Shown here: positions 1-13,384 of the stretch, in pieces
How the letters are laid out: each line of letters starts with the position of its first letter
Numbering within the stretch: the stretch's first letter is position 1
Assembly: GCA_947488485.1 (NCBI GenBank)
Contig: CANKZO010000048.1
Coordinates: 1 to 13,384, forward strand
Source: Opitutia bacterium
GTDB taxonomy: Bacteria > Verrucomicrobiota > Verrucomicrobiae > Opitutales > UBA953
Direction: 5' to 3'
DNA: 13,384 nucleotides
Program-made: the position numbers and the translations under genes
The notes under the pieces: generated by a model
Told to the model about the DNA's origin: nothing
The model's input: the letters and a program-made list of their open reading frames with translations, nothing else
The model's database searches: none

Positions 1-1482
1 GTGAAGAAGACGGAAGTCGCCGAAGCGAAGGCCACGCTCACGGCCGGCCAGCACGAGTTCACGCTGAAGTGGCTCAACCCGCCCACGAAGATCGCGGGCA
101 ACAACCGCACGCTCTCCGGCCTGCGCCTACGCCTGCTCGGCCCGACCGACACGCGCACCGAACTCCAGCGCCGCCTGGCCGTCGTCGTCGGCACGGCGAC
201 CGGCGAAGCCCGCGCCCGCCTCGTCGCCAATTCCTTCGTCAGCCGCGCGTTCCGCCGCCCGGCCACGCCCGCCGAGATCAACCGCTACGTGAAGGTCTGG
301 CTCGAGGGCGAGAAGAACGGCGGCAACTGGGAAGCCGGCGCGCAGGCGATGATCGCGGTCGTGCTGGCTTCGCCGAAATTCATCTTCCGCGCCGAACAGG
401 ACGACGCTCCGACGGCCAAGGACGCTCATCCGGTCAGCGAGTTCGCCCTGGCTTCGCGCCTCAGCTATTTCCTCTGGGGCTCGATGCCCGACGACGAGCT
501 TTTCCAGCTGGCCTACGCGAAGAAGCTCTCGGCCAACCTCGAAGCCCAGGCCCGCCGCCTGCTCAAGGACCCGCGCTCGCGCTACCTGACCGAAGGCTTC
601 GGCCTGCAGTGGCTGCAGCTCCGCCAGCTCTCCACGGTCTCGCCCGATCCGGGCATGTTCCCGGGCTTCAACGACGCGGTGCGCACGTCGATGGTCAAGG
701 AGACGGAGCTGTTCTTCGCCGAAATCGTTCGCGAGGACCGCAGCGTGCTCGACCTGATCGACGCGGACTTCACCTACCTCGACCGGAATCTCTCGCAGTT
801 CTACGGCATCCCGATCGAAGCCCAGCGTGGCCGCGGGCCCTCTTCGTTCGTCCGCGTGACGCTCCCCAAGGGCGAACGCGGCGGCATCCTCACGCACGCG
901 TCGATCCTCACGGCGACTTCCAACCCGACCCGCACGTCGCCGGTGAAGCGCGGCAAGTGGATCCTGGAACAGATCCTCGGTTCGCCGCCGCCGCCCGCGC
1001 CGCCTTCCGTCCCGACCCTCGAAGGTCAGCAGCTCAAGGGTAACCTGCGACAGCGCATGGAGCAGCACCGCGCCGATCCGGCCTGCGCCTCCTGTCACTC
1101 GCGCATGGACGCCATCGGTTTCGCGTTCGAGAAGTTCGATGCGGTCGGCCAGATCCGCCAGAAAGACGAAGGCCAGCCGATCGATCCCTCCGGTAAGCTG
1201 CCCGACGGCCGCTCCTTCGCCGGCGCGGGTGAGCTCAAGAAACTCCTCCTCGCCGATAAGGAGAAGGTGGTCCGTAACCTCTCTTCGAAGCTCCTCACGT
1301 TCGGCCTCGGCCGCGGCCTCGATTACTACGACGGCCCGGCGGTCGATAAGATCACCGAAGCCGCCCTCAAGGCCGACGGCCGTTTCTCGGCCTTGGTCCT
1401 GGGCGTGGTCCAGAGCGAACCTTTCCGCCTCCGCCGGGGAACTTCCCAGGTTGAAGGCGGGTCACAACCTGCTAAGAAGTAA
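1..1482 (+). CDS. DUF1595/DUF1592/DUF1588/DUF1585 haem-containing protein, 5' truncated by window edge
   Basis: This is the C-terminal part (493 residues in view) of the large multi-DUF cytochrome-like proteins of Planctomycetota and Verrucomicrobiota. Residues 1-50 resemble the end of the carbohydrate-binding-like domain usually placed before DUF1595. DUF1595 follows at about 65-130 (FRRPATPAEINRY, SPKFIFRAE), DUF1592 at about 145-270 (ASRLSYFLWGSMPDDEL), DUF1588 at about 285-385 (RGGILTHASILTATSNPTRT), and DUF1585 at about 405-478 (LLTFGLGRGLDYYD). A c-type haem motif CASCH sits at C362-H366 inside DUF1588, so export is expected. The protein is shorter than the family norm and opens on a GTG at base 1 with no leader or DUF1587, so the true start lies upstream. 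It ends 10 nt before the DUF1552 gene, its usual partner, and the two are probably co-transcribed. The family's biochemical role is not settled; a link to carbohydrate breakdown or surface redox chemistry is inference. Confidence 0.93.
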   Translation: MKKTEVAEAKATLTAGQHEFTLKWLNPPTKIAGNNRTLSGLRLRLLGPTDTRTELQRRLAVVVGTATGEARARLVANSFVSRAFRRPATPAEINRYVKVWLEGEKNGGNWEAGAQAMIAVVLASPKFIFRAEQDDAPTAKDAHPVSEFALASRLSYFLWGSMPDDELFQLAYAKKLSANLEAQARRLLKDPRSRYLTEGFGLQWLQLRQLSTVSPDPGMFPGFNDAVRTSMVKETELFFAEIVREDRSVLDLIDADFTYLDRNLSQFYGIPIEAQRGRGPSSFVRVTLPKGERGGILTHASILTATSNPTRTSPVKRGKWILEQILGSPPPPAPPSVPTLEGQQLKGNLRQRMEQHRADPACASCHSRMDAIGFAFEKFDAVGQIRQKDEGQPIDPSGKLPDGRSFAGAGELKKLLLADKEKVVRNLSSKLLTFGLGRGLDYYDGPAVDKITEAALKADGRFSALVLGVVQSEPFRLRRGTSQVEGGSQPAKK

Positions 1483-1492
1483 GCACCCCGCC

Positions 1493-2839
1493 ATGCCGTC
1501 CGACCTCCTCCATCGCCGCACGGTCCTCAAAGGACTGGGCACCGTCATGGCGCTGCCGTGGCTCGAAGCGATGGGCCTCCAGACCGGCTGGGCCGCGGGC
1601 AATACGCCGACCAAACAGGCTGCGCCGAACCGCATGGCGATCCTTTACGTCCCCAACGGCGTGAACATGGACGGCTGGCGCGTGGGCGCCGAAGGCTCCT
1701 TGCCTTCCAAACTGCCGGCGATCCTCGCGCCCCTCGCGGCGCACAAGTCCGACTTCTCGGTGCTCACCGGCCTCACCGCTGACAAGGCCCGCGCCAACGG
1801 TGACGGCGGCGGCGACCACGCGCGCGCGATGTCCGCCTTCCTCACCGGCGCCCAGCCGCGCAAGACCGACGGCGCCAACATCCGCTCCGGTGTCTCGGCC
1901 GACCAGCTCGCCGCGGCCCGCATCGGCGACCGCACGCGCCTCGCCTCCCTCGAGATCGGCACCGAAGCCAGCAAGCTGGCCGGCGGTTGCGACTCGGGTT
2001 ACTCCTGCATCTACCAGTCCAACATCGCCTGGCGCTCGGCCACCCAGCCGATGCCGAAGGAAGTGAACCCGAAGCTGATCTTCGAACGCCTCTTCGGCGC
2101 CGGCACCGACCTCGAGCGCCAGCGTCGCGACGCCCAGCGCAAGTCGGTCCTCGACGCCGTGCGCGACGACTTCCGTGAGCTCAACGTCCGCCTCGGTGCC
2201 GACGACCAGCGCAAGCTCGACGAATATTTCACCGCCGTGCGCGAGATGGAGCTGCGCATCCAGAAGTCCGGCGCCTCCGGCCAGCCTAAGGTCCCGGCCA
2301 ACGCGTCCATCCCCAAGGGTATTCCGGAAAGCTACGCCGAACACCTGCGTCTGCTCGCCGACCTCATGGTCCTCGCGTTCCAGACCGACACCACGCGCGT
2401 GGCGACGTTCGTCCTGGCCAACGAAGGTTCCAACCGCTCGTACCCGTTCATCGGCGTGCGTGACGGCCACCACAGCATCTCGCACCACGGCCACGATCCC
2501 GTGAAGCTGTCGAAGATCCAAGACATCAACGTCTTCCACGCCACGCACTTCGCGTATCTCCTCGAGCGCCTCAAGTCCGTGAAGGAAGGCGACGGCAATC
2601 TTCTCGATCATTCCATGATCGTCTACGGCTCCGGTAACGGCGACGGCGACCGTCATAACCATGACGACCTTCCGATCATCCTCGCCGGCAAGGGCTGCGG
2701 CACGATCCGTCAGGGACGTCACGTCGTCTATCCCAAGGAGACCCCGCTGAACAATCTCTGGGTCAGCATGCTCAACCGCATGGACATCCGCGACGTCCAG
2801 CTCGGCGACAGCACCGGCGAGTTGAAGAAATTGAGCTGA
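1493..2839 (+). CDS. DUF1552 family protein with Tat signal
   Basis: A 448-residue DUF1552 protein. The N-terminus carries a twin-arginine signal (HRRTVLKGLG, R8-R9) followed by a hydrophobic stretch, so folded export through Tat is expected. Family landmarks are clear: LYVPNGVNMDGW near residue 50, HARAMSAFLTGAQP, GYSCIYQSNIAWRS, PMPKEVNPKLIFERLFGAG, KLDEYFTAVREMELRI, and the C-terminal GSGNGDGDRHNHDDLPI and TPLNNLWVSMLNRM. The length matches the family. The ATG at 1493 was chosen because it puts the RR motif at the right distance; the frame is open further upstream, but only as a shadow of the preceding gene. It follows the DUF1592-group gene by 10 nt, the standard pairing. No enzymatic activity is established for the family. 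Its last 19 bases form one arm of a perfect palindrome. Confidence 0.95.
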   Translation: MPSDLLHRRTVLKGLGTVMALPWLEAMGLQTGWAAGNTPTKQAAPNRMAILYVPNGVNMDGWRVGAEGSLPSKLPAILAPLAAHKSDFSVLTGLTADKARANGDGGGDHARAMSAFLTGAQPRKTDGANIRSGVSADQLAAARIGDRTRLASLEIGTEASKLAGGCDSGYSCIYQSNIAWRSATQPMPKEVNPKLIFERLFGAGTDLERQRRDAQRKSVLDAVRDDFRELNVRLGADDQRKLDEYFTAVREMELRIQKSGASGQPKVPANASIPKGIPESYAEHLRLLADLMVLAFQTDTTRVATFVLANEGSNRSYPFIGVRDGHHSISHHGHDPVKLSKIQDINVFHATHFAYLLERLKSVKEGDGNLLDHSMIVYGSGNGDGDRHNHDDLPIILAGKGCGTIRQGRHVVYPKETPLNNLWVSMLNRMDIRDVQLGDSTGELKKLS

Positions 2840-2934: not shown

Positions 2935-2945
2935 GCCGTTTCTCA

Positions 2946-2971
2946 GGTAGGGACAGTACCACGTGCGGTCC
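2946..2971 (+). repeat. GGTAGGG hairpin module, copy 2
   Basis: GGTAGG leader with arms GGACAGTA (2951-2958) and TGCGGTCC (2964-2971) around CCACG. The stem has one mismatch and one G-T pair. It is nearly identical to the copy at 3668-3693, and the same CTCTGTCT linker leads into the next module in both places. Confidence 0.75.
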
Positions 2972-2981
2972 TCTGTCTCCA

Positions 2982-3006
2982 GGTAGGGTCGGGACCGCGT
3001 CACGAC
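2982..3006 (+). repeat. GGTAGGG hairpin module, copy 3
   Basis: GGTAGG leader, then GTCGGGAC (2988-2995), loop CGC and GTCACGAC (2999-3006). Seven of eight positions pair. It lies 10 nt after copy 2. Confidence 0.7.
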
Positions 3007-3019
3007 ATAGCTGTCTCTA

Positions 3020-3045
3020 GGTAGGGTCGGCACTGCGTGCCGATC
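3020..3045 (+). repeat. GGTAGGG hairpin module, copy 4
   Basis: GGTAGG leader with stem GGTCGGCAC (3025-3033), loop TGC and GTGCCGATC (3037-3045). It pairs over 9 positions including one G-T pair, and differs from the copy at 3704-3729 by a single base in the hairpin. Confidence 0.75.
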
Positions 3046-3098
3046 TAGTATGCCTCAAGTCGCATCGCGCCCTCCTATCCCCCGGCCCCCACGCAAAG

Positions 3099-3479: not shown

Positions 3480-3667
3480 CCCGACGCCGGCACGCCGGCG
3501 AAGGAAAGGCGCGGATTTATCCCGGGAGGGAAGGGGAGCGGGCCGAAGGCCGATTTCTTTAAGCGCGAAAACACCCGTGGATCAGCGTGAGCTGAACCTA
3601 CATGGATAGTGTATTCGCATTCTTAAGGACACGCCCCCGACTCTGCATCCCCCATTCCCTGTGTCAA

Positions 3668-3693
3668 GGTAGGGACAGCACCACGTGCTGTCC
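3668..3693 (+). repeat. GGTAGGG hairpin module, copy 5
   Basis: GGTAGG leader and a perfect 9-bp stem, GGACAGCAC (3673-3681), loop CAC, GTGCTGTCC (3685-3693). It is the intact version of copy 2 and is followed by the same CTCTGTCT linker. Confidence 0.8.
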
Positions 3694-3703
3694 TCTGTCT
3701 TTA

Positions 3704-3729
3704 GGTAGGGTCGGCACTGCGTGCCGACC
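3704..3729 (+). repeat. GGTAGGG hairpin module, copy 6
   Basis: GGTAGG leader and a perfect 9-bp stem, GGTCGGCAC (3709-3717), loop TGC, GTGCCGACC (3721-3729). With copy 5 it repeats the tandem arrangement of copies 2 and 3. Confidence 0.8.
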
Positions 3730-3760
3730 TAGCGTCCTCATGCCCCCCCGCCACAGGCAC

Positions 3761-3806: not shown

Positions 3807-3818
3807 TGTTTTATCTCC

Positions 3819-3849
3819 GGCCAACCGGCTAACTGATCAACCGGTCAAC
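3819..3849 (-). repeat. Dispersed 31-nt repeat, copy 1 (minus orientation)
   Basis: The reverse complement of this stretch begins GTTGACCGGTTGA and ends GGTTGGCC. It matches 12947-12977 at 27 of 31 positions. In both places it neighbours a GTGACACGGGG-type repeat and a GGTAGGG hairpin. Confidence 0.75.
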
Positions 3850-3862
3850 TAGCGGTGCAACG

Positions 3863-4988: not shown

Positions 4989-5513
4989 TTAGTTCGGGCC
5001 GCCGCAGTAGTCGCAGGTCGCGGCCCCGGGCGCGGCGGCCTGGCTGTTGCTGGCCCCGCAGCTGGAGCACACGAAGCGCCTTACCCTGGCGACCTCGCGC
5101 GGCCTGTCTCGTGCGGGCGCCTCAGGGGAGATGACGCTGCCGGGCGAAGGCTGCGCGATAGGCGGAGTGGCCGCGACCTGGCCTGGTTGGCGTGGGTCCG
5201 GGCCATAGGCGTTCGGGCCGTTCGTTCCGGATAAGGCGAATAAGACTAAATTGACGCCGGGAAGCAGGCCGACCTGCCCGGGCCAGCCGACGTCTTGTGA
5301 ACGTCGCCAGAATCCTGCAGCGGCTACCGCAAAGAACTGGCACATGAGCAAAAAGAAGAGACAGGGCCACAGTCCCCCGCGAAGGAACTCGGGCTCAGCT
5401 CCAAAGGTAATCAGGGCTGTGCCTAGGATGATGACCAGGAAGGACCCGGCTAAGGACGCCAGCAGCCTCCGGCGGGTGATCCGGCCTTGGAATGAGAACA
5501 ACGAGCTGAGCAC
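4989..5513 (-). CDS. DUF805 membrane protein with C-terminal zinc ribbon
   Basis: Residues 1-110 are a DUF805 domain: FSFQGRITRR at the start, membrane segments at about 18-37, 46-68 and 80-95, the family motif RRSQDVGWPG (70-79), and the closing TNGPNAYGPDP (97-107). A Pro/Ala/Arg-rich linker then leads to a zinc ribbon with C149, C152, C167 and C170 (CSSC, CDYC). DUF805 proteins are usually about 110-140 residues and lack this tail, so this is an extended form. The start is a GTG at 5513; no ATG was seen in the stretch just upstream. It is transcribed divergently from the SPFH operon 166 nt away, whose proteins carry the same kind of ribbon, which suggests joint function. The role of DUF805 is not established. 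The domain call is firm; the link to the operon is inference. Confidence 0.88.
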   Translation of the reverse strand: MLSSLFSFQGRITRRRLLASLAGSFLVIILGTALITFGAEPEFLRGGLWPCLFFLLMCQFFAVAAAGFWRRSQDVGWPGQVGLLPGVNLVLFALSGTNGPNAYGPDPRQPGQVAATPPIAQPSPGSVISPEAPARDRPREVARVRRFVCSSCGASNSQAAAPGAATCDYCGGPN

Positions 5514-5679
5514 CTGCCCAGAAACCGCTTTTGGCCCCGGATTACAAATATTTTACTTAATTATCCCGCCCGGCCCCCTTTCTGCGTTGATGCAGGCCCA
5601 CCCCTGGGCGATTTTGTACGTCTATTGAATAAGCCGTCCCCGTCGGCATACTCTCCCTGACCCCCCTTTTCCCGCACTC
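5514..5679. promoter_or_regulatory. Divergent promoter region between the DUF805 and SPFH genes
   Basis: The 166-nt spacer must drive both divergent units. It has an AT-rich core at about 5541-5567 that contrasts with the GC-rich surroundings, and a small hairpin (GCCCA 5596-5600, TGGGC 5605-5609). Possible elements are TTGATG (5587-5592) and TATTGAAT (5623-5630) for the plus strand, but their spacing is poor. No exact promoter is claimed. Confidence 0.35.
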
Positions 5680-6816
5680 ATGGCTATCGTAGACGTAATC
5701 AAATGGAACGGCGACCCGGACACCCTCGCCTGGAAGCATCCTGGTGATGAACTGGGCACCTGGACGCAGATGATCGTGGCGGAATCCCAGGAGGCCTTCC
5801 TCTTCAAGGGTGGCCAGCCGGTGGGTCCGTTCACGGCCGGACGTCACACGCTGGATACCGCCAACTACCCCGTCCTCGGCCAGATCCTGAAGATCGCCAC
5901 CGGCGGCCGCTCCCCGTTCACCGCCGAGGTCTGGTACGTCAACAAAGTCATCAGTCTCGACGTGAAGTGGGGCACCCCCACCGCCATCCAGGCGCTCGAC
6001 CCGCAGTATCGCATCATGCTGCCGGTGCGGGCGTACGGTCAGCTCGGCCTGCAGGTCGTCGACTCGGGTAAGTTTCTCGTCAAGCTCGTCGGCACGCTCG
6101 GCACCTTCGACCGCGAGCGCTTCAACAACTACTTCCGCGGCGTCATCGTGACGCGCGCCAAGGATGCCGTCGCGACCCTGCTCACGACCAAGAAGATCTC
6201 CATCCTCGAGATCTCCGCCCACCTCAACGAGATCTCCGACGCGCTCAAAGCCGAACTCACGCCCGAGCTCGAGGAGTTCGGCCTGGGCCTGACGAAGTTC
6301 TTCGTCAACTCGATCGATACGCCCGAGGACGATCCCGCGGTGGCCCGGCTCAAGGCCGCGCTCGCCCGCAAGGCCGAGATGGACATCGTCGGCTACAACT
6401 ACCAGCAGGAGCGTAATTTCGACGTGCTGCAGGAGGCCGCCGGTAATACCGGCTCGCCGGGCACCATGATGGGCGCCGGCCTCGGACTCGGCATGGGTCT
6501 CGGCGTCGGTCCGGCCTTCGGCGGCGCGATGGCGGCCATGGGCGGACAGTTGCAGGGCCAGCCCCAGACGGCGCCTTGCCCGAAGTGCCAGGCCGCTAAT
6601 CCGGCCGGCGCAAAATTCTGTGTCTCCTGCGGCGGCGGCCTCGGGGTCGTGGCCACCATCGCGTGCCCGGCTTGCCAAGTCGCTTCGCCGGCCACCGCCG
6701 CCTTCTGCACCGGCTGCGGCGGCGCCTTGAAGCCGAAGTGCGGCAAGTGCTCGGCCCAGCTGCCGGCCGGCGCGAAGTTCTGCCTCGATTGCGGGACGCC
6801 GGTCACCAAGGCCTGA
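5680..6816 (+). CDS. SPFH-domain protein (YdjI / virion core-like family) with three C-terminal zinc ribbons
   Basis: Residues 1-250 match the bacterial SPFH family typified by Bacillus YdjI: MAIVDVIKWNGDPDTLAWKH at the start, ESQEAFLFKGG (35-45), GPFTAGRHTLDTANYPVL (49-66), an SPFH core to about 210, then VARLKAALARKAEMDIVGYN (221-240). A glycine/methionine-rich linker (about 256-290) leads to three ribbons: C300/C303/C314/C317, C329/C332/C343/C346 and C354/C357/C368/C371. No membrane segment is seen, so it probably sits on the cytoplasmic membrane face as an oligomeric scaffold, as SPFH proteins do. In Bacillus the YdjG-YdjH-YdjI complex recruits the PspA homologue under membrane stress; a similar job here is inference, since no pspA is in view. 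It heads a five-gene run, with the next start 18 nt downstream. No Shine-Dalgarno precedes the ATG. Confidence 0.92.
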   Translation: MAIVDVIKWNGDPDTLAWKHPGDELGTWTQMIVAESQEAFLFKGGQPVGPFTAGRHTLDTANYPVLGQILKIATGGRSPFTAEVWYVNKVISLDVKWGTPTAIQALDPQYRIMLPVRAYGQLGLQVVDSGKFLVKLVGTLGTFDRERFNNYFRGVIVTRAKDAVATLLTTKKISILEISAHLNEISDALKAELTPELEEFGLGLTKFFVNSIDTPEDDPAVARLKAALARKAEMDIVGYNYQQERNFDVLQEAAGNTGSPGTMMGAGLGLGMGLGVGPAFGGAMAAMGGQLQGQPQTAPCPKCQAANPAGAKFCVSCGGGLGVVATIACPACQVASPATAAFCTGCGGALKPKCGKCSAQLPAGAKFCLDCGTPVTKA

Positions 6817-6834
6817 TCACGGTAAGCTTTCACC

Positions 6835-7557
6835 ATGCAACCCAAGAACTTCTTCCGGATCCTCGGACTCACGCTCCTCGTCGTGGCCGCCACTATCGGG
6901 CTGGCTTTCCTCCTCGCTCCGCAGCCGATCGACGCCGGCCGGTTCAGCCTGGCGCTGGTGCCGGTGGTCTTCGCGGAGCTGCTGCTCGGCGGTGGGATTC
7001 TTTTCTCCGGCACCGATAACCCCCGCTCCGCCCGTCTGCTGTTCGGTTTCAGCCGCGCCTGGGTGGCCACGCTGTACCTCGGCTTCACGCTCCTCGCCGC
7101 CGCGGTCGTCGCCCTCGGCGCCGGCATCGTCGTGCTGGCCGTCGCGCACATCATCGCGGCCGTCGCCGTGACCGGCTGGTTCGTGCTTGGGTCCATGCTG
7201 GCGGAGTCCGCAGATGCTTCCGAAGCCGTCCACCCCGTAGACTCGACGCTCAGCCAGTTCAAGTCCGCCGCCGCTCGTCTCCACGCGCGCCTGCGCGTGG
7301 TCGTCTCCCCGGGTCTCGACGCCGCCAAGGCTGCGCTGGCCAAGGCCGAAGACGACCTCCGTTACGTCTATGTGGAGTCCACGGCGGCTTCCGCCGCGGA
7401 TGACGCCGAGATCGGCGAACTCCTGGGCTCGTTGCAAGCCGCCGTCGAGCAGGCCGAGCAGGCTGACGCCGCCGCCGCCCAGACGATCGTCGGCCAGGCC
7501 GCCCGCCTGTCCGCCGCCGTCAAGCGCCGCACCGCCACGCTCGCGCGCCGTCTTTGA
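6835..7557 (+). CDS. Four-helix membrane protein with C-terminal helical tail
   Basis: A 240-residue protein of no recognised family. Hydrophobic segments at about 7-27, 36-57, and two within 75-120 predict four membrane helices. Residues 130-240 are a soluble, Ala/Glu/Gln-rich tail rich in predicted helix (AAKAALAKAEDDL, SLQAAVEQAEQADAAAAQ), probably cytoplasmic and coiled. It is the only product of the run without a zinc ribbon. The ATG at 6835 is preceded by GGTAAG about 9 nt upstream, the best ribosome-binding candidate in the operon. Spacing of 18 and 21 nt to its neighbours implies co-transcription, so it may be the membrane anchor or tether of the SPFH protein. Confidence 0.88.
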   Translation: MQPKNFFRILGLTLLVVAATIGLAFLLAPQPIDAGRFSLALVPVVFAELLLGGGILFSGTDNPRSARLLFGFSRAWVATLYLGFTLLAAAVVALGAGIVVLAVAHIIAAVAVTGWFVLGSMLAESADASEAVHPVDSTLSQFKSAAARLHARLRVVVSPGLDAAKAALAKAEDDLRYVYVESTAASAADDAEIGELLGSLQAAVEQAEQADAAAAQTIVGQAARLSAAVKRRTATLARRL

Positions 7558-7578
7558 TTCGCCGTCGGAACTTAGCCC

Positions 7579-8421
7579 ATGAGTCTCGGCATGATCATCG
7601 GCGCCGCCGACGCGGTTTCTTCCGCCATCCTCTACCTGGTGCTCCTGGGAGGTGCTTTCGGTTGGCTCTTCTGGAGTCGTACCCAGCTGGAGCTGACGCC
7701 GGAACAGTCGCAGCTCGACCCGCTCATCACCCGGCAGTTCCTCGCCGGAGGCGTCTATTATCCGGAGAACCAGAAGCGCGTCCGCCCGTGGCGTGCGCAA
7801 GCCTGGATGGGTCTCTTGGTCGCCGCCCCGAGCCTGTTCCTGCTGCTCGGCGGCCCGTCTTTCGTCAGCCTCTTCCCGCTGCTGGCCGGCTTGGCTCTCG
7901 CGGCCTGGTGCTTCTTTTACGCCGACGCCGTCATGACGGATCGGCCGGCCTGGGCTAATTTCCAGCCGGATCACGTCGTCGTCACCACCGTCGGCAGCAG
8001 CCGGACCGTGTTCGTCCTCGGGCCGCGGGTCAGCCTCACGCTCGAGCTGGAGCGACTCCCGCTTTCGCCCTTCGGCGACAAAGCCACGGGCCGTCGGTCT
8101 TTCCTGACGATCGCGGAAGGCGCGTCGTCGGTGCGGCTGCCGCTGGCCTTCGGGGGCTCCGCCCAGTTTCTGGCGCTCGGCCGGAAAGAGGGCGCCCGCA
8201 TCGCTTTCGCGCCGGGGACCCCGAAATGGTTTGTCGACGCGATGAATAGCGCGTCCGCGCGCGGCTCGGAGACTTCTAAGACCGGGCGCGGCGGTGCGGG
8301 GCCGATGGTAACGCTGACCTGCCCCGGTTGCGGCAGCACCGCGCTGTACCCGAAGTCGGGTTCCGGCGCCGAATGCCAGTTCTGCGGGACCTCCGGCCTC
8401 CAGCCGGCGGCGAAATCCTGA
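7579..8421 (+). CDS. Membrane protein with C-terminal zinc ribbon
   Basis: A 280-residue protein with membrane segments at about 12-32, 76-92 and 97-117. The soluble domain at about 125-235 is beta-rich by eye (HVVVTTVGSSRTVFVLGPRV, SSVRLPLAFGGSAQFLALG). After a Ser/Gly-rich linker the C-terminus has a ribbon with C248, C251, C266 and C269 (CPGC, CQFC). I do not recognise the family. Third in the run, it starts 21 nt after the previous stop with no clear Shine-Dalgarno. Its layout of membrane anchor, soluble domain and terminal ribbon matches the two following proteins, although sequence similarity to them is not evident. Confidence 0.88.
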   Translation: MSLGMIIGAADAVSSAILYLVLLGGAFGWLFWSRTQLELTPEQSQLDPLITRQFLAGGVYYPENQKRVRPWRAQAWMGLLVAAPSLFLLLGGPSFVSLFPLLAGLALAAWCFFYADAVMTDRPAWANFQPDHVVVTTVGSSRTVFVLGPRVSLTLELERLPLSPFGDKATGRRSFLTIAEGASSVRLPLAFGGSAQFLALGRKEGARIAFAPGTPKWFVDAMNSASARGSETSKTGRGGAGPMVTLTCPGCGSTALYPKSGSGAECQFCGTSGLQPAAKS

Positions 8422-8472
8422 ACTTAACCTGCACGCTCGCCAACGGCGCGTTCACCCCCAACTTTTCCAACC

Positions 8473-9153
8473 ATGTCAGACGTCGCCAACGTAATACCCG
8501 GGTTGCTGTGCCTTGGCTTCGTCGGCTGGATTGTCTCCAAGATCTGGAGTTCGCTGACGTCCGTCGAGCCCGTGACGGTCCCCCCGACGCTGCCAGACGT
8601 CCGCCCGAAGCCTCCCTTCGACGTGTATCGCGATGCGCGTGGCCCCACTCCCTTGTTCGGCTTCCCGGTGGAGTTCTCCTCCAAATTCGAGGCGTCGCTT
8701 TATCCGAACATCGTCACGGGGCTCACCCTCAACCGGGATTATCTCGCCGTGCGCCGGGGTTCTTACGGGGTGAAGGCTTTCCTCTTGGATAAGAATCTCA
8801 CGGTCGGCGTCACCACCGGCGTCCCGCCCGGCTTCAAGGAAGCCGCTCAATACTCGATGGAATTGGAGTCCGAGACCGAGGTCGCCCGGTTCCCGGTCTC
8901 ATTCCAAGGCTGGCTGCAGATCGTCGACGCGGCCAGGCGATGCGGCGCGCAGCTGGAGGTGGCCGACGATCTCCCGGCCTCGCTCCGGGTGCTCATCGAG
9001 ACTCCGTTGCCTGGCGACGAAGCGATCAAGCCCGCCCGTGCCAAGTCGAAGGGCTCCCCCGCGGCCGCGTCGCGCGAGACCGGACGCTGCAAGTGCTGCG
9101 GAGCGAACGTCGGCCGCAAGGCGGCGTGCGATTTCTGCGGCGCCAGCCAATAG
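8473..9153 (+). CDS. Membrane-anchored zinc-ribbon protein, paralogue 1
   Basis: A 226-residue protein with one N-terminal membrane segment (about 7-25), a Pro-rich linker, a soluble domain (about 65-175) and a terminal ribbon with C206, C209, C219 and C222 (CKCC, CDFC). It is paralogous to the next gene: shared landmarks are VTGLTL, a central RRGS or RGQG stretch, GFKE, SMELESE or SMTLASE, ARFPVSFQGWL or ARFPLEFPGWL, and identical ribbon spacing. No known family was recognised. With only a short N-terminal segment ahead of the membrane, the topology is not fixed by sequence alone; ribbons are normally cytoplasmic. The ATG follows a 51-nt gap, the longest in the run, which holds a weak CGCC-AAC-GGCG hairpin. 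Confidence 0.87.
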   Translation: MSDVANVIPGLLCLGFVGWIVSKIWSSLTSVEPVTVPPTLPDVRPKPPFDVYRDARGPTPLFGFPVEFSSKFEASLYPNIVTGLTLNRDYLAVRRGSYGVKAFLLDKNLTVGVTTGVPPGFKEAAQYSMELESETEVARFPVSFQGWLQIVDAARRCGAQLEVADDLPASLRVLIETPLPGDEAIKPARAKSKGSPAAASRETGRCKCCGANVGRKAACDFCGASQ

Positions 9154-9161
9154 CGAAAGCC

Positions 9162-9884
9162 ATGGGGGCCTTCGTCTGCATCTTTTTCGGCCTCCTCGGA
9201 TATTGGCTGATATCCAAGCTCAGCTCCGAGCCAGATGAATCATCGGACGATGGGGATGGCCAGCGCTTGCCTCCTGCGCCTGCTTCGCTCCCCGGCCGCG
9301 ACCCGGGTCCCTATTCTGGGACGGTCCTGGCGTCTCCGCGGCGCGCGTTCGACCTCTATGAGGATGCGGTGTCCGAGTCCGGCCGTTTCGACGCGAGCCA
9401 CGAAGCGTTTTCCTCGAGCCGTTTCCCGCATAAGCAGGCGAGCATGGTGACGGGCCTGACGTTCGAAGACGATCGGATCTACGTCCTGCGCGGACAGGGC
9501 GTCACCATTTTCCCCTTCGTGCCATCACTCACCTTGGCCGTGGTGGCGGGGCGCACGGAAGGCTTCAAGGAGACCACGCCCTTGAGCATGACGCTGGCCA
9601 GCGAAGTCCAAGGCGACTCCGCGCGTTTCCCCTTGGAATTCCCCGGCTGGCTGGAAGTCCTGCATCAGGCTCGCGAGGGCGGCGCGGTCATCGAACTCGA
9701 CGCCAGTCTCCCGGAGCGGCTCAAGGAATTCATCACTGAGCCGACCGTCGACGACGGCCTCCCTCCGATCGTGATTCGACCGGGCCAGCCCGAGGTGTCC
9801 GCCCCCCGCCCGAGCAAATGCCGGGCCTGCGGCGCCAGTTTCGGCCGTAGGGAGACATGTGATTTTTGCGGTACGCCGCGATAG
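9162..9884 (+). CDS. Membrane-anchored zinc-ribbon protein, paralogue 2
   Basis: A 240-residue tandem paralogue of the preceding gene, starting 8 nt after its stop. It has a membrane segment at about 3-18, an acidic linker (EPDESSDDGDGQ), the shared soluble domain (VTGLTF, GFKETTPLSMTLASE, ARFPLEFPGWLEVL) and a terminal ribbon with C220, C223, C233 and C236 (CRAC, CDFC). The ATG at 9162 was chosen over open frame further upstream because it begins directly with the membrane segment and clears the previous gene. It is the last gene of the run and faces a minus-strand gene only 20 nt away. Gene duplication followed by divergence of linker and pre-domain is inferred from the matched layout. Confidence 0.87.
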   Translation: MGAFVCIFFGLLGYWLISKLSSEPDESSDDGDGQRLPPAPASLPGRDPGPYSGTVLASPRRAFDLYEDAVSESGRFDASHEAFSSSRFPHKQASMVTGLTFEDDRIYVLRGQGVTIFPFVPSLTLAVVAGRTEGFKETTPLSMTLASEVQGDSARFPLEFPGWLEVLHQAREGGAVIELDASLPERLKEFITEPTVDDGLPPIVIRPGQPEVSAPRPSKCRACGASFGRRETCDFCGTPR

Positions 9885-12884: not shown

Positions 12885-12946
12885 AGGGGGAGACATAAGA
12901 GGCACAGAGGCTCGGAGGCTCAGTGGACCAGAACGATACAGGGTGA

Positions 12947-12977
12947 GTTGACCGGTTGACCCGTTGGCTGGTTGGCC
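12947..12977 (+). repeat. Dispersed 31-nt repeat, copy 2
   Basis: It begins GTTGACCGGTTGA and ends GGTTGGCC, matching the reverse complement of 3819-3849 at 27 of 31 positions across a distance of 9.1 kb. Internally it is built from GTTGRCCG-like and GTTGGC-like units. Confidence 0.75.
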
Positions 12978-13009
12978 AGGGAGACAATGACCGTTTACAC
13001 GAAGGCATC

Positions 13010-13052: not shown

Positions 13053-13384
13053 TCAACCTCCGGCGTCGCGGTAGATCTCGCCGAGTTTGGTGAGGGCGCC
13101 GTCCTTGAGGAGCGCGGCCTTGCCTTCCTTGGGATTGAAGTAGGCGTAACGTTCGACGAAACGCTGCCGGTCCATGGCCTTGAGCGCGCCGCGGAGGAAC
13201 TGGGCATGGCCGTTGTCATCGGCCTTGGTGAACATAGCGTTGAATTCGGTGACCCAGATCGGCCGGCGATACGTGGCGTAAAGTTCCTTGAGCCATTCTT
13301 CATAGGCCACGGGGTCGGCGCTGCGATACCAATGGGCGGTGATGAAATCGACCTTCAGCTTCTTGCGCTGGGCCTGCTCCATGA
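13053..13384 (-). CDS. Glycoside hydrolase catalytic-core protein (Glyco_hydro_cc type), 5' truncated by window edge
   Basis: The visible 109 residues match the C-terminal half of the asl1-like glycosyl hydrolase catalytic domain (Glyco_hydro_cc, the GH128 group): a strand ending KVDFITAHWY (10-19), a helix YEEWLKELYATYRRP, the strand IWVTEFN with the likely catalytic Glu46, then VERYAYFNP (about 76-84), ALLKDGALTKLGEIYRD and the stop. These enzymes typically cleave beta-glucans; substrate and export cannot be judged without the N-terminus. An ATG at 13382 is internal, because the fold needs strands upstream of it. The gene converges on the exported-protein gene across a repeat-rich spacer. 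Confidence 0.85.
   Translation of the reverse strand, partial: MEQAQRKKLKVDFITAHWYRSADPVAYEEWLKELYATYRRPIWVTEFNAMFTKADDNGHAQFLRGALKAMDRQRFVERYAYFNPKEGKAALLKDGALTKLGEIYRDAGG

What the first reader, a model, noticed from the sequence alone, without database searches (positions are those of the whole stretch)
4989..9884. Divergent SPFH/DUF805 island in which five unrelated membrane-linked proteins all end in zinc ribbons
DUF805, SPFH, a three-helix protein and two tandem paralogues each finish with CxxC-n-CxxC ribbons (1, 3, 1, 1 and 1). The bodies differ, so the ribbon looks like a shared tag, perhaps for mutual assembly or recruitment of a common partner at the membrane. SPFH/zinc-ribbon complexes that recruit PspA are known in Bacillus (YdjG-YdjH-YdjI), but this gene set, with a DUF805 fusion, a four-helix coiled-tail protein and the paralogue pair, is not one I recognise. 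A joint function is inference from layout.
Basis: partly seen in the sequence, partly recalled or inferred. Interest (0 to 1): 0.72.

Follow-up and report, generated by a model that had tools for sequence, protein, structure and literature searches.

The report
Zinc-ribbon-tagged membrane scaffold gene cluster
In uncultured bacteria related to Verrucomicrobiota, a gene for a membrane scaffold (SPFH) protein with a zinc-binding tail sits next to several membrane proteins that carry the same kind of small zinc-binding tag, which probably holds them together as one complex; it resembles, but is not the same as, a stress system known from Bacillus.

Summary
Five of six genes at 4989-9884 end in CxxC-n-CxxC ribbons: DUF805 protein A (1), SPFH protein B (3), D (1), tandem paralogues E and F (1 each). 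C, four helices with a helical tail, has none. The island recurs in an Opitutae MAG as A-ribbon / B / C / E-ribbon plus two tiny proteins that are only a membrane helix, linker and ribbon. The ribbon is kept in 64 of 64 aligned E/F proteins and 7 of 7 full-length D proteins. In 39 other SPFH loci of the class, ribbon-bearing membrane proteins lie beside SPFH (28 of 155 nearby ORFs), not farther off (0 of 216). Of 11 readable DUF805 relatives, only the one beside SPFH has a ribbon. Corrections: D, E and F probably share one PH-like body; and PspA is not implied (none in the nearest genome; no co-occurrence above chance). Best reading: a PspA-less cousin of Bacillus YdjG-H-I in which the ribbon is an assembly tag docking membrane proteins on the SPFH scaffold. 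Docking is inferred; no binding was tested. The full island is rare in sequenced genomes. New variant of a known kind.

The parts
4989..5513 (-). A: DUF805 membrane protein with one C-terminal ribbon (CSSCGASNSQAAAPGAATCDYCG), divergent from the + strand operon
   Evidence: PF05656 E 9.6e-10; ribbon at residue 149; L001 homologue 35% identical, also with ribbon and also divergent from SPFH
5680..6816 (+). B: SPFH / Band_7_1 protein with three C-terminal zinc ribbons; no hydropathy peak except one inside the ribbon tail
   Evidence: PF13421 2.8e-39, PF12773 and PF13240; 87-88% identical in L001/G001
6835..7557 (+). C: four membrane helices plus a predicted helical tail, no ribbon
   Evidence: 65% identical in L001; a similar-shaped protein follows ribbon-tailed SPFH in L040-L042, with only weak sequence similarity; 0 of 69 homologues carry a ribbon
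7579..8421 (+). D: three membrane helices, PH-like body (probable), C-terminal ribbon
   Evidence: part of the body matches E's body by profile, E 1.4e-4 over 43 columns without the ribbon
8473..9153 (+). E: one membrane helix, PH-like body (probable), C-terminal ribbon
9162..9884 (+). F: tandem paralogue of E, same layout
   Evidence: 37% identity to E; full-length homologue in L002 beside the same 405-aa neighbour gene

Best explanation
The island encodes a PspA-independent SPFH membrane-scaffold complex of the YdjG-YdjH-YdjI kind. B, which has no membrane helix of its own, forms the cytoplasmic SPFH oligomer. C is the likely dedicated membrane anchor. A, D, E and F (and in a relative two minimal helix-plus-ribbon proteins) are brought to the scaffold through a small cytoplasmic zinc ribbon at the end of a linker. 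The PH-like bodies of D, E and F would face the membrane or a protein ligand. Shown: gene content, ribbons, their conservation, the adjacency statistics, and that ribbon-tailed SPFH genes have a C-shaped neighbour. Inferred: that B oligomerises; that the ribbons bind each other, B or C; that they bind zinc; that tails are cytoplasmic; that the complex organises or protects the membrane.
For: (1) Most of the layout lies in an Opitutae MAG: A-ribbon divergent from B-3 ribbons / C / E-ribbon, then an 89-aa and an 84-aa protein, each only helix-linker-ribbon. The 89-aa one matches F and E over linker and ribbon and has no room for their body, so helix plus ribbon seems to be what is kept. (2) In 39 SPFH loci of the class, window and L001 left out, ribbon-plus-membrane ORFs number 28 of 155 within 1.7 kb and 0 of 216 beyond 2.5 kb (p 5e-12); among membrane proteins alone 28 of 73 against 0 of 64. 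They fall into 7 sequence families once ribbons are masked. (3) DUF805: of 15 places found in 384 genomes, 11 could be read, and only the one beside SPFH has a ribbon; the second DUF805 of that same genome has none. (4) Ribbon-tailed SPFH has an adjacent 200-260 aa protein of 3 or more helices in 5 of 5 loci, against 1 of 36 with other tails (window and L001 included). (5) 8 of 63 E homologues share their 'longest contig' length with a C homologue (chance about 0.35), and 3 of 7 D homologues with an E homologue: indirect linkage. (6) In B. subtilis, loss of YdjG or YdjH abolishes membrane recruitment of YdjI and PspA (PMC8581546, abstract and passages); that operon is described as having band-7 plus C-terminal ZnR in one protein (there called YdjL, which I take to be YdjI) and two ZnRs plus TM in YdjG (PMC11237479, passages).
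Against: No interaction was tested or predicted. 18 of the 28 ribbon neighbours are one family, so the adjacency figure is not 28 independent events. All 28 carry the ribbon in the N-terminal part (first ribbon at residue 3-76), and SPFH tails there are GYF_2 (4) or HTH_17 (2) in the 6 non-ribbon tails checked, so the general pairing is not ribbon to ribbon and C-terminal ribbons are special to the window/L001 type. 13 of 39 loci had no ribbon-plus-membrane neighbour by my caller. The 5 of 5 pairing rests on about three lineages: L041 and L042 are near-identical, and the window's C resembles the L041/L042 proteins only at E 3e-4, a level that D against L001's C also reaches, so homology of C across them is not established. 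No D homologue shares a contig length with a C homologue. The full island is rare: E only in G001 of 95 relatives, C in G001 and one weak hit of 384.
Confidence: 0.53

Rival explanations
1. The ribbons are zinc or redox sensors: all parts of the complex are switched together by zinc loss or thiol oxidation, not docked by the ribbon.
For: Many four-Cys sites in one gene cluster; CxxC ribbons are redox-sensitive in other proteins (recalled, no call).
Against: Survival of helix-plus-ribbon minimal proteins in L001 fits a tag better than a regulated body; not a direct test.
Confidence: 0.15
2. It is a Psp system: the SPFH-ribbon complex recruits a PspA encoded elsewhere, as in Bacillus.
For: YdjI is needed for PspA membrane foci in B. 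subtilis (PMC8581546, passages).
Against: No PspA match in G001; SPFH and PspA co-occur 13 of 85 versus 33 of 299, p 0.34; no PspA family match among the 13 window proteins scanned. SPFH-negative genomes may include misses, since only a few candidates per genome were scored.
Confidence: 0.1
3. Ribbons bind nucleic acid, linking membrane and DNA or RNA, as suggested for the YdjG ribbon in print.
For: PMC9239133 passage calls the YdjG ribbon a DNA-binding type; SPFH tails in related loci include HTH_17.
Against: Apart from the ribbons themselves, no nucleic-acid-binding family over its cut-off in A to F.
Confidence: 0.12
4. Coincidence of unrelated small-ribbon genes in a lineage rich in ribbons.
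For: Zinc ribbons are common in prokaryotes (general knowledge).
Against:: local enrichment, conservation and DUF805 specificity.
Confidence: 0.03

Closest known systems
Bacillus subtilis pspA-ydjG-ydjH-ydjI operon
   Same: SPFH (band-7) protein with C-terminal zinc ribbon, encoded beside membrane proteins of which one carries zinc ribbons (PMC11237479 and PMC9239133, passages)
   Different: No PspA, TPM-domain or two-ribbon protein found here; instead ribbon-tagged DUF805, ribbon-tagged PH-like proteins and the four-helix C protein. No B. subtilis sequence was compared directly
Class-wide SPFH / ribbon membrane protein pairs (18 members of one family, 17 with two ribbons by motif)
   Same: Same SPFH family, ribbon membrane neighbour
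   Different: Ribbons in the N-terminal part of the partner; SPFH tail is GYF_2 or HTH_17 in the examples checked
SPFH / four-helix protein / zinc-ribbon-TM2 loci (L040, L041, L042)
   Same: Ribbon-tailed SPFH followed by a four-helix protein like C in size and layout and by a ribbon membrane protein
   Different: Single partner with N-terminal ribbon and TM2 domain (PF05154, tested in L040); no DUF805, D, E or F
Archaeal Meth_adaptin / ESCRT-linked loci
   Same: Include an SPFH-family protein with coiled-coil and zinc ribbon (PMC10936438, passages)
   Different: Adaptin-appendage and GOLD-domain partners, archaeal
SHOCT domain
   Different: Not a zinc ribbon; no SHOCT match in the window proteins

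Membership tests
YdjG-H-I / PspA system | SPFH Band_7_1 protein with C-terminal zinc ribbon(s) | tested here: met
YdjG-H-I / PspA system | pspA in the locus | tested here: not met
   No PspA family match among 13 window proteins scanned
YdjG-H-I / PspA system | pspA elsewhere in the genome | tested here: inconclusive
   The window's own genome is not held; none in nearest genome G001
YdjG-H-I / PspA system | YdjH-like TPM domain membrane protein | tested here: not met
   No TPM family match in A-F
YdjG-H-I / PspA system | YdjG-like protein with two ribbons before a body and TM | tested here: not met
   A, D, E and F have one C-terminal ribbon each
YdjG-H-I / PspA system | Membrane partners required to recruit the SPFH protein | not testable with these tools
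   Needs an experiment
DUF805 (PF05656) | Match over the gathering score | tested here: met
   39.3 bits against 25.7
PH-like superfold (E, F, D bodies) | PH fold | tested here: inconclusive
SHOCT-tagged SPFH | SHOCT domain at the C-terminus | tested here: not met
   Tail is DZR / Zn_Ribbon_1

The most novel reading that the evidence does not exclude
In this lineage the zinc ribbon is a true address label: a multi-ribbon SPFH scaffold with its four-helix partner C recruits any membrane protein that acquires one ribbon, so cargo can be swapped (DUF805, PH-like, TM2) or reduced to a bare helix plus ribbon. This would be a modular docking code for a bacterial membrane microdomain that works without PspA.
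Probability: 0.35. Interest if true: 0.72.

Novelty: new variant of a known kind. Interest (0 to 1): 0.5.

Why it matters
How bacterial SPFH proteins choose their membrane partners is open. A cluster where one small module is attached to several different membrane bodies, and apparently kept when the body is lost, makes a specific, testable rule: the ribbon is the docking part. It also separates SPFH/ribbon complexes from PspA, with which they are usually discussed.

Tried and rejected
PspA recruitment: tested by class-wide co-occurrence and not supported (the two searches each report 384 genomes of the class and their handles agree, so I took them as one set). A viral origin: no relative of E in viral contigs, and no viral fold match under E 0.001. 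Solved structures: B has no SPFH match by sequence; the only hit is the ribbon stretch of 9sfa at E 0.13; one class SPFH gave none. D structure: pLDDT 42.8, not used for fold claims. RNA families: none at the gathering score. Promoters: none found by the sigma-70 scan, which is not informative for this phylum. C-like hit in G216 (L009): weak (E 8e-7), no SPFH among the ORFs listed around it, not counted as the same locus. Family-level search of G001: SPFH in 2 of 79 genomes, G001 itself and one distant (27% identity), so conservation across a family could not be shown and the island looks sporadic. Sampling: 40 of the 88 SPFH places listed were fetched, mostly the best-scoring, with G259 and G296 passed over and the lower part of the list not fetched; L063 was dropped because my ORF caller did not recover its SPFH. 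L050 and L055 are cut by contig ends. Of 15 DUF805 places 4 could not be read (L100, L102, L104, L111); one (L112) was read by eye. The regular-expression classes of SPFH tails are rough (L051 was classed 'other' but has HTH_17 by Pfam). Membrane helices are from a simple hydropathy rule.
Full report
What is there. The six genes are as described: DUF805 protein A on the minus strand, and B to F on the plus strand in one tight run. B is a Band_7_1 SPFH protein with a double-zinc-ribbon tail plus a further ribbon; A is a DUF805 protein; C to F have no informative Pfam family (NCBIfam gives nothing above its cut-offs for A to F). Ribbon counts are A 1, B 3, C 0, D 1, E 1, F 1. E and F are paralogues, 37% identical.

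Conservation. E homologues (63 found) keep the ribbon: 64 of 64 rows of the alignment of E, F, the L002 copy of F and 61 homologues. Of the two hits not aligned, P0007 has the ribbon and P0010, probably a chimera, does not. D has 7 hits; the 6 full-length ones and D itself have the ribbon, the fragment P0070 does not. None of 69 C homologues has a ribbon. In an Opitutae MAG (L001) the order is A-ribbon, B with 3 ribbons, C, E-ribbon, then an 89-aa and an 84-aa protein made of a membrane helix, a linker and a ribbon; D and a full F are missing. The 89-aa protein is closest to F and E over linker and ribbon, so it is probably an E/F copy that lost its body. A contig labelled Prosthecobacter (L002) carries F next to the same 405-aa neighbour gene as the window (DNA 87% identical over 1,697 bases and 92% over 132; the neighbour protein 82%). 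Without genomic context for the metagenome proteins, linkage is indirect: 8 of 63 E 'longest contig' lengths recur among the 69 of C, expected about 0.35 (at most 4 in 2,000 simulations), and 3 of 7 of D recur among E; none of D recurs among C.

Is the ribbon a tag for SPFH neighbours? SPFH relatives were found in 85 of 384 genomes of the class. In 39 loci other than the window and L001 (of 88 places, 40 fetched, one dropped), ORFs with both a ribbon and a membrane helix number 28 of 155 within 1.7 kb of SPFH and 0 of 216 beyond 2.5 kb; of membrane ORFs 28 of 73 against 0 of 64; 26 of 39 loci have one, 13 do not. With ribbons masked these 28 fall into 7 families, one with 18 members; one of the seven is a ribbon-plus-TM2 protein. 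All 28 carry their ribbons in the N-terminal part, whereas the window and L001 carry them at the C-terminus. DUF805 gives an internal control: in 384 genomes, 15 places match A, 11 could be read, and only the SPFH-adjacent one has a ribbon; the second DUF805 of that same genome does not. By the places printed, none of the other ten lies on a contig with a listed SPFH match except one in G281, 2.2 Mb away.

A refinement. SPFH tails differ across the class: of seven tested by Pfam, four have GYF_2, two HTH_17 and one ribbons (alignment). Ribbon-tailed SPFH occurs in 5 of the 41 loci, and in all 5 a protein of 200 to 260 aa with 3 or more helices lies directly beside it, against 1 of 36 for other tails. 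The window's C and L001's C are 65% identical; those of L040 to L042 are related to each other (E 1e-17); between the two groups the best match is E 3e-4, which is no better than D against L001's C, so common descent across the groups is open. Still, ribbon tail and a C-shaped neighbour go together, and C is the best candidate for the membrane anchor of B. About three lineages stand behind this.

PspA. Here PspA is not implied: none in G001; overlap 13 of 85 against 33 of 299 (p 0.34); none among 13 window proteins scanned.

Novelty. Searches of the held papers for YdjI/YdjG/PspA/SPFH, SPFH with zinc ribbon or DUF805, PspA/SPFH/Toastrack, DUF805 or zinc ribbon (5 of 456 listed), band 7 with zinc ribbon and gene neighbourhood (12 of 15 listed), Band_7_1/PF13421/zinc-ribbon/Verrucomicrobi and SPFH with GYF/TM2 listed no paper whose title or abstract start describes this set; apart from the passages cited I did not read them. 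SPFH plus zinc ribbon as such is in print, in Bacillus and in archaeal ESCRT-linked loci (PMC10936438, passages). The library lacks most subscription journals.

Verdict. A real and unusual gene cluster, conserved in close relatives but rare in sequenced genomes; the docking model is the best reading and is directly testable, but no binding has been shown.

Noticed in passing
window 2945-3048, 3659-3733: Short dispersed repeats (about 38 nt, palindromic core); blastn also finds 36-74 nt matches to them in flanks of L001 and 30-37 nt matches in L002.
   Followed up: partly
window 3809-3850 and 12946-12987: Inverted pair of 42 nt, 81% complementary, 9.1 kb apart, enclosing the island.
   Followed up: no
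window 1-2839: Adjacent DUF1592/DUF1588/DUF1585/DUF1595 protein and DUF1552 protein (PF07631, PF07627, PF07624, PF07637; PF07586), a pair that I recall as common in Verrucomicrobiota and Planctomycetota.
   Followed up: partly
window 13053-13382 (-): End of a glycosyl hydrolase catalytic-core protein (PF11790), cut by the window end.
   Followed up: no
L074 7256-9206: SPFH followed by a DUF4178 protein (PF13785) and a 439-aa membrane protein, each with one ribbon motif: another partner type.
   Followed up: no
L051, L054, L057-L062, L066, L068, L069, L077, L079 among others: SPFH beside a two-ribbon membrane protein; SPFH tails of L051 and L066 are HTH_17, unexpected at a membrane scaffold.
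   Followed up: partly
L001 16007-20647: Genes that look like DUF262-type and type I restriction-modification HsdM/HsdS lie a few kb from the island in this MAG (recognised from memory, not searched).
   Followed up: no
L009 4976-5901 (G216): Weak C-like four-helix protein beside a protein ending in a Gly/Ser/Cys-rich tail, without SPFH among the listed ORFs.
   Followed up: no
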